Positions 60,907 through 61,277 of a DNA stretch of 64,000 nt are shown one piece after another (the stretch's first letter is position 1; each line of letters begins with the position of its first letter). The stretch spans positions 1 to 64,000 of the forward strand of contig CAJQOP010000002.1 in assembly GCA_905479945.1 (NCBI GenBank), written 5' to 3'. Made by a program: the position numbers and the translations under genes. Source of the stretch: an uncultured Glaciecola sp. (GTDB taxonomy: Bacteria; Pseudomonadota; Gammaproteobacteria; Enterobacterales; Alteromonadaceae). Under the pieces are notes generated by a model, which was given only the letters and a program-made list of their open reading frames with translations, made no database searches and was not told the origin of the DNA.

Positions 60907-60923
60907 TTTAAGCAATTGAATAA

Positions 60924-60957
60924 AGGCGCTACCTTTCGAGGTTAGCGCCTTTTTTTT
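60924..60957 (+). terminator. Rho-independent terminator of the S10 operon
   Basis: GGCGCTACCT and AGGTTAGCGCC pair around TTCG with one bulged base, followed by eight T residues. Confidence 0.93.
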
Positions 60958-60967
60958 GTCTTTAAGA

Positions 60968-61111
60968 AAGCGTTAAATGGTTAGTTAGGCGGGAGAATTT
61001 CATGGGAACAAACTCGCTTTTCGCCATCCATGGCTGCTCTCAAATGACATCCATGTCATTTGAAGGTTTGTTCCCATGAAATTCTCCCGCCTAACTAACC
61101 ATTTAACGCTT
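60968..61111. repeat. 144-bp nested palindromic element with perfect 46-bp inverted arms
   Basis: Left arm 60968-61013 and right arm 61066-61111 are exact reverse complements over 46 bases. The 52-bp loop contains a second palindrome, TCAAATGACAT-CC-ATGTCATTTGA, at 61040-61063. No ORF. It begins about 10 bases after the S10 terminator T run. It has the look of a fold-back or MITE-like repeat. Confidence 0.92.
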
Positions 61112-61151
61112 ATCACGCATTTTCGGTAGCTTTGGGAATTAGTATTAAACT

Positions 61152-61198
61152 AACAAACGCGCTTTTCGTCATCCATGGCCGCTCTCAAATGACATCCA
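61152..61198 (+). repeat. Diverged direct copy of the palindromic element's inner segment
   Basis: 47 bases here match 61007-61053 at 44 positions (core TTCGTCATCCATGGCC versus TTCGCCATCCATGGCT). The inverted arm and the inner palindrome's second half are absent. Confidence 0.88.
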
Positions 61199-61219
61199 AG
61201 CCATATTAAAACAAACCTC

Positions 61220-61251
61220 TTGACCTTAGATGTTACTCTAAGGTTTATAAT
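61220..61251 (+). promoter_or_regulatory. MerR-type promoter-operator
   Basis: TTGACC and TATAAT are 20 bp apart, the over-long spacing typical of MerR-activated promoters. A perfect dyad ACCTTAGA-N6-TCTAAGGT (61223-61244) fills the spacer. It lies 27 bp before the merR-like gene, so the regulator controls its own operon. Confidence 0.92.
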
Positions 61252-61277
61252 CGTATTATTGATTCAAGGGAGGTAAT

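What the first reader, a model, noticed from the sequence alone, without database searches (positions are those of the whole stretch)
60968..61198. Nested palindromic element with exact 46-bp arms plus a diverged half copy
Two 46-base arms are perfect reverse complements around a 52-base loop, and the loop holds its own 11-bp palindrome. A 47-base part recurs 145 bp downstream with three mismatches and without the arms. Perfect identity over 46 bp implies recent formation, gene conversion or selection. It sits just after a terminator and encodes no protein. It may be a MITE-like mobile repeat, a processed RNA, or a structure that marks a rearrangement point.
Basis: seen in the sequence. Interest (0 to 1): 0.72.

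Follow-up and report, generated by a model that had tools for sequence, protein, structure and literature searches.

The report
Dispersed CsrA-type double-hairpin RNA repeat
The palindrome is one of at least 17 copies in this marine bacterium of a known but uncharacterised RNA family (TwoAYGGAY), two small hairpins that look like landing sites for the global regulator CsrA held on a long stem whose sequence differs at most sites yet stays almost perfectly paired.

Summary
In detail: 46/46 complementary arms (60968-61013, 61066-61111), a 52-nt loop, and a diverged core copy at 61152-61209. The element matches Rfam RF01731 (TwoAYGGAY) above its cut-off, on the minus strand. Rfam puts that family in the same clan as CsrB. 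Both loops carry CANGGANG, the CsrA/RsmA site. The genome holds 17 copies of the core, and 11 of 13 genomes of the genus hold 2 to 108. Nearly every full copy has 25-80 bp arms that pair with each other (80-99% on average per genome) but usually do not resemble the arms of other copies. Arm mismatches are G-U on the GGA strand far more often than the mirror-image A-C (127:44 in the genus, 64:4 in other lineages), and alignable arms show compensatory changes. So the stem looks selected as a structure of that strand, most simply RNA; template-switch correction may add to the near-perfect pairing. The site is empty in two related species. It is not a MITE or REPIN with constant ends, nor an assembly artefact, nor a rearrangement scar. 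The 'half copy' looks like a decayed upstream unit; such units recur at other loci. Transcription, CsrA binding and the means of dispersal are untested.

The parts
60919..60955 (.). Terminator hairpin of the S10-spc operon after rpsQ; symmetric stem that could also stop minus-strand transcripts coming out of the element
   Evidence: inverted repeat I3, 92% complementary, followed by T8; use as a minus-strand terminator is inference
60968..61013 (-). 3' arm of the long stem (GGA strand = minus strand)
   Evidence: 46/46 complementary to 61066-61111; inside the RF01731 match 60965-61114
61014..61065 (-). Core between the arms (with the inner ends of the arms: model R1, 61008-61071), present 17 times in this genome
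   Evidence: R1 match 84.1 bits, E 8.1e-23; RF01731 match
61040..61063 (-). Hairpin 1 of the core, first in 5'-3' order on the minus strand: loop CATGGATG
   Evidence: fold; CANGGANG invariant in 16 cores while the stem covaries
61023..61034 (-). Hairpin 2 of the core: GCCATGGATGGC, loop AUGGAU
   Evidence: fold; invariant CA.GGA.G
61066..61111 (-). 5' arm of the long stem; preceded by TGCGTGATAAG, a motif shared by several copies in this genus
61152..61216 (-). Decayed second core (the 'half copy'): no arms; hairpin 1 loop mutated (CTTGGATG) and its stem broken; the remaining upstream unit of a two-unit tandem
   Evidence: R1 match 61153-61216, 48.6 bits, E 2.3e-11; fold; the same arrangement at C22, C74 and the tuf loci of G003

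Best explanation
The palindrome is a member of the TwoAYGGAY RNA family (RF01731), read on the minus strand. A long double-stranded stem presents two short hairpins whose loops (CANGGANG) have the form of a CsrA/RsmA binding site. SHOWN: family membership, multiple dispersed copies, invariant loops on covarying stems, arms that stay paired while their sequence changes, a one-strand G-U bias among arm mismatches, an empty site in two relatives, and a csrA gene in the genome. INFERRED: the minus strand is transcribed; one CsrA dimer binds the two loops, so that the copies together act as a CsrA-titrating sponge like CsrB; the stem protects the RNA and holds the hairpins. Arm identity is kept by selection on pairing, probably helped by replication template switching between the arms, which copies one arm onto the other. 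The half copy is a leftover unit of a tandem array. New copies arise by an unidentified route.
For: RF01731 at 52.6 bits against a cut-off of 43, E 1.4e-7 in the own genome and no hit in 14 control genomes. RF01731 and CsrB share Rfam clan CL00106. A published motif scan proposed CsrA binding for this family (PMC4333381); the SELEX site RUACARGGAUGU and the ANGGAN hexaloop are described in PMC7652899. In 16 aligned cores CA.GGA.G is invariant in both loops while the stems covary. 17 own copies and 11 of 13 genus genomes positive. Arms within a copy average 94.5% identity against 41% between copies in this genome (8 copies; random 35%); 98.7% against 44.5% in G003, 94.8% against 43.9% in G002. 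Arm mismatches: G-U on the GGA strand 127, mirror A-C 44 in the genus (p 1.6e-10; per copy 49:7); 64:4 in other lineages (p 6e-15). Compensatory changes: 24 of 48 pairs, 0 of 500 shuffles reach it, slides give 4-6; 23 of 48 in genome G004; two both-sided changes between lpd orthologues of G009 and G010. Empty site in G009 and G010. csrA gene present. Template switching is reported to create and maintain RNA hairpins (PMC8794818).
Against: No expression data. No convincing minus-strand promoter (2 weak matches, 1.0 expected). The GGA strand lies antisense to the flanking genes more often than sense (74:42 on one side, 71:42 on the other), so read-through from neighbours would give mostly the wrong strand. 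The G-U bias could in part reflect strand-biased C-to-T mutation, or selection on a single-stranded DNA hairpin, where G-T is also tolerated. This genome alone has few informative mismatches (6 G-U, 3 A-C, 13 other). Arms were measured only in copies with a detectable arm match, which raises the within-copy figure.
Confidence: 0.62

Rival explanations
1. A selfish mobile DNA repeat that acts as single-stranded DNA: the folded GGA strand is recognised by a transposase or recombinase, and the loops are its recognition site. The resemblance to CsrA sites is incidental.
For: Dispersed copies, tandem units and empty sites; placement mostly just past gene ends; a one-strand fold would also give a G-T bias; orientation mostly antisense to neighbours.
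Against: Loops match the CsrA site in detail and the family shares Rfam's clan with CsrB. The Y1 (REP-type) transposase family PF01797 is absent from the genomes with most copies, G004 (108) and G002 (45). Arms are not shared between most copies, unlike transposon ends. No target-site duplication was evident by eye in the flanks.
Confidence: 0.2
2. A purely mutational palindrome: replication template switching (quasipalindrome correction) repeatedly overwrites one arm with the other, and the structure has no function.
For: Very few G-U pairs in G000 and G003 arms (10 in 616 pairs) against 64 in 986 in other lineages, as expected if whole arms are overwritten. At the lpd and tuf loci the middles of both arms differ together between species while the ends are kept.
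Against: It does not predict the one-strand G-U bias, the invariant loops on covarying core stems, or membership of an RNA family found in distant phyla.
Confidence: 0.1
3. Inverted duplication of local flanking DNA around an inserted core, so that each copy's arms are simply the neighbouring sequence copied in reverse.
For: Arms differ at almost every locus in G000, G002 and G003.
Against: In G004, 24% of copy pairs share recognisable arms, so arms travel with the element. Orthologous arms at lpd in G009 and G010 align throughout. An apparent gene end in the arm at C78 was not a gene.
Confidence: 0.05

Closest known systems
TwoAYGGAY RNA, Rfam RF01731 (Weinberg et al. 2010, PMC2864571)
   Same: Two hairpins with AYGGAY/ANGGA loops inside an outer stem; score above the Rfam cut-off; outer stem poorly conserved in sequence, as noted in PMC4333381
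   Different: Here the outer stem is 46 bp and perfect, its sequence is specific to the locus, copies are many per genome, and several loci are tandem
CsrB/RsmZ-type CsrA-sequestering sRNAs (Rfam RF00018, clan CL00106)
   Same: Hairpins with GGA loops of the CsrA type; same Rfam clan
   Different: Two sites per copy on one long stem and many dispersed copies, instead of one gene with many sites; binding and expression unproven here
REPIN / REP elements with RAYT transposases (PMC3116915)
   Same: Dispersed, extragenic, hairpin-forming, sometimes tandem
   Different: The two small hairpins are in the same orientation, no RAYT-type gene in the richest genomes, arms not constant
MITEs and NEMIS/Correia-type repeats (own knowledge)
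   Same: Short non-coding repeats with long terminal inverted repeats
   Different: Those have ends shared by all copies and target duplications; here most arms are not shared and no duplication was evident by eye
Template-switch-maintained RNA hairpins (PMC8794818)
   Same: Perfect stems and multi-base compensatory changes
   Different: That work concerned rRNA and other RNA genes; here it would act on a dispersed repeat

Membership tests
TwoAYGGAY RNA (RF01731) | Covariance-model score at or above the gathering cut-off | tested here: met
   52.6 bits against 43, minus strand 60965-61114, positions 1-168 of 168
TwoAYGGAY RNA (RF01731) | Two hairpins with AYGGAY-type loops enclosed by an outer stem | tested here: met
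   Fold of the minus strand; invariant CA.GGA.G in both loops of 16 cores
CsrA-binding sRNA (CsrB clan) | GGA in hairpin loops matching the CsrA consensus, and a CsrA protein in the genome | tested here: met
   CATGGATG in both loops against RUACARGGAUGU; csrA at C86:25889-26044
CsrA-binding sRNA (CsrB clan) | Transcribed and bound by CsrA | not testable with these tools
   No expression or binding data; no convincing promoter
MITE | Terminal inverted repeats shared by all copies | tested here: not met
   Between-copy arm identity 41-46% in most genomes with several copies
MITE | Target-site duplication | tested here: inconclusive
   None seen by eye in the flanks of the copies listed; exact insertion ends are not resolved at the empty site
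REPIN/REP | Y1 (RAYT) transposase in the same genome | tested here: not met
   PF01797 absent from G002, G004, G005 and G012, which carry 23-108 cores; the window's own genome does have one PF01797 gene, not examined for linkage
REPIN/REP | Two REP units in inverted orientation | tested here: not met
   Both small hairpins have the same orientation and loop

The most novel reading that the evidence does not exclude
A bacterial genome carries a distributed CsrA sponge: many mobile copies of a CsrA-binding double hairpin, each on a long double-stranded RNA stem that is rewritten by template switching, so that a selfish-looking repeat sets the free level of a global regulator.
Probability: 0.2. 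Interest if true: 0.8.

Novelty: new variant of a known kind. Interest (0 to 1): 0.55.

Why it matters
TwoAYGGAY was described in 2010 and I found no shown function for it. The copies found here give many natural variants, a strand assignment (the GGA strand) and a direct test: CsrA binding with and without the GGA loops. If the copies are expressed, total CsrA-binding capacity would vary with repeat number between related species (2 to 108 cores), linking repeat spread to global regulation. The arms are also a natural system for separating selection on pairing from template-switch correction.

Tried and rejected
Arms as inverted copies of local flanks: suggested by C78, where an arm seemed to be a gene's end, but no such gene exists there and arms are shared between copies in G004. 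Link to rRNA operons: the shared flanks were tuf and lpd gene ends, read from the sequence; no tRNA or rRNA family was found. Rfam's MIR2275 match is below cut-off and occurs on both strands, as any long palindrome would. REPIN/RAYT: transposase absent where copies are most numerous. Integron attC site: considered because of GTTAG/CTAAC in the arm, dropped because that part of the arm is not shared by other copies. The first genome contigs pattern scan was too strict and found nothing. The four-species lpd alignment A2 was misaligned and cut short, so it was not used. A literature search for CsrA-binding dispersed repeats gave nothing to the point.

Full report
OBSERVATION. The arms 60968-61013 and 61066-61111 are 46/46 complementary with 52 nt between them, and a 58-nt stretch recurs 145 nt downstream at 88% identity. 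The strand folds at -99.4 kcal/mol against -32.0 +/- 3.5 for shuffles. The place is the gap between the rpsQ (S17) terminator and a merR-like gene followed by a permease. Rpl/rps, merR and permease names are my reading of the translations.

IDENTITY. Rfam RF01731 (TwoAYGGAY) matches the minus strand 60965-61114 over its whole model, 52.6 bits against a cut-off of 43. Four copies pass the cut-off in this genome and a fifth scores below it; no control genome has one. A covariance model of the core alone (R1) finds 17 copies here and copies in 11 of 13 genomes of the genus, from 2 to 108. A public-genome pattern scan finds related cores in Shewanella, Nitrincola, Marinobacterium, Pantoea, a Legionellaceae genome and Desulfuromonadales; some of those single-pattern hits may be chance.

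ANATOMY. On the minus strand the order is: 5' arm, hairpin 1 with loop CATGGATG, hairpin 2 with loop CATGGATG, 3' arm. In 16 cores CA.GGA.G is invariant in both loops while the stem letters change in matching pairs. This is the form of the CsrA/RsmA site (SELEX RUACARGGAUGU; ANGGAN hexaloop; PMC7652899). Gardner and colleagues proposed CsrA binding for this family (PMC4333381), and Rfam lists it in the same clan as CsrB. The genome has csrA.

ARMS. Almost every full copy has arms of roughly 25-80 bp that pair with each other, while outer flanks do not match. Within-copy identity averages 94.5% here, 98.7% in G003, 94.8% in G002 and 80.5% in G004; between copies it is 41-46% in most genomes with several copies and 56% in G004, where some arms are clearly related (random 35%). 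These figures come from copies with a detectable arm match, which favours high values. Arms therefore belong to the element and change fast while staying paired.

WHY PAIRED. If RNA pairing on the GGA strand is selected, leftover mismatches should be G-U on that strand and not A-C. They are: 127 against 44 in the genus and 64 against 4 in other lineages. Where arms can be aligned, both-sided changes abound: 24 of 48 pairs in one lineage, beyond all 500 shuffles and 4-6 for slid controls, and 23 of 48 in G004. Between lpd orthologues of G009 and G010, two pairs changed on both sides. Strand-biased deamination or a single-stranded DNA role could also give the G-U bias. G000 and G003 arms have fewer G-U pairs (10 in 616) than other lineages (64 in 986), which fits extra homogenisation by template switching, a mechanism proposed for RNA hairpins (PMC8794818). 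That step is inference.

HISTORY. The site is empty in G009 and G010, which have the same S17 terminator and merR gene, so the element was gained here or lost there. Elements at the lpd locus are shared by G000, G003, G009 and G010, and at tuf by G000, G003 and G010: they are probably old and inherited, with changed arm middles. G009 keeps what looks like an arm remnant at one tuf locus. G003 has three core units in tandem at one tuf gene and two at the other. The window's half copy fits as an upstream unit that has lost its arms and hairpin 1 loop.

WHAT IS NOT KNOWN. Expression: the promoter scan is at chance level, and the GGA strand is mostly antisense to neighbours (genes there are simple ORF calls). 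Movement: no Y1 transposase in the richest genomes, no target duplication noticed by eye.

VERDICT. A real, structured, dispersed RNA-family element in a long-armed form, most likely a CsrA-binding RNA; function and transcription remain to be shown. It is filed as a new variant and not just a new member because of the long locus-specific arms, the many dispersed copies and the tandem units; membership of RF01731 itself was tested and met.

Noticed in passing
L215 (G000:C22) about 840-970 and L225 (G003 lpd, minus strand): A second repeat near tuf (G000) and lpd (G003) has a related GGA core between TTGCCAAAA/TTTTGGCAA, with a short stem segment that differs between the genomes but stays paired, and shared sequence outside the stem (CCTAGCGACAACAGCG ... 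TTATAGATTGCGGCC).
   Followed up: partly
L265 (G003 tuf) and L255 (G003 second tuf): Tandem units of core plus one arm separated by GTGTGATAAGTGTTATC; one unit's arm resembles the arm at the other tuf gene.
   Followed up: partly
L264 (G009 tuf): An arm-like remnant without core or partner arm after the tuf terminator, apparently a lost element.
   Followed up: no
window 61221-61252: TTGACC...TATAAT-like promoter with a long spacer around a dyad before the merR-like gene, typical of MerR-regulated promoters; the gene downstream encodes a permease with a cysteine-rich stretch.
   Followed up: no
G012:C4:362559-363013: Three cores at an exact spacing of 194 bases, a regular tandem array.
   Followed up: no
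G004 (108 cores), G002 (45 cores): Copy number of the core varies from 0 to 108 between species of one genus; no cause identified.
   Followed up: no
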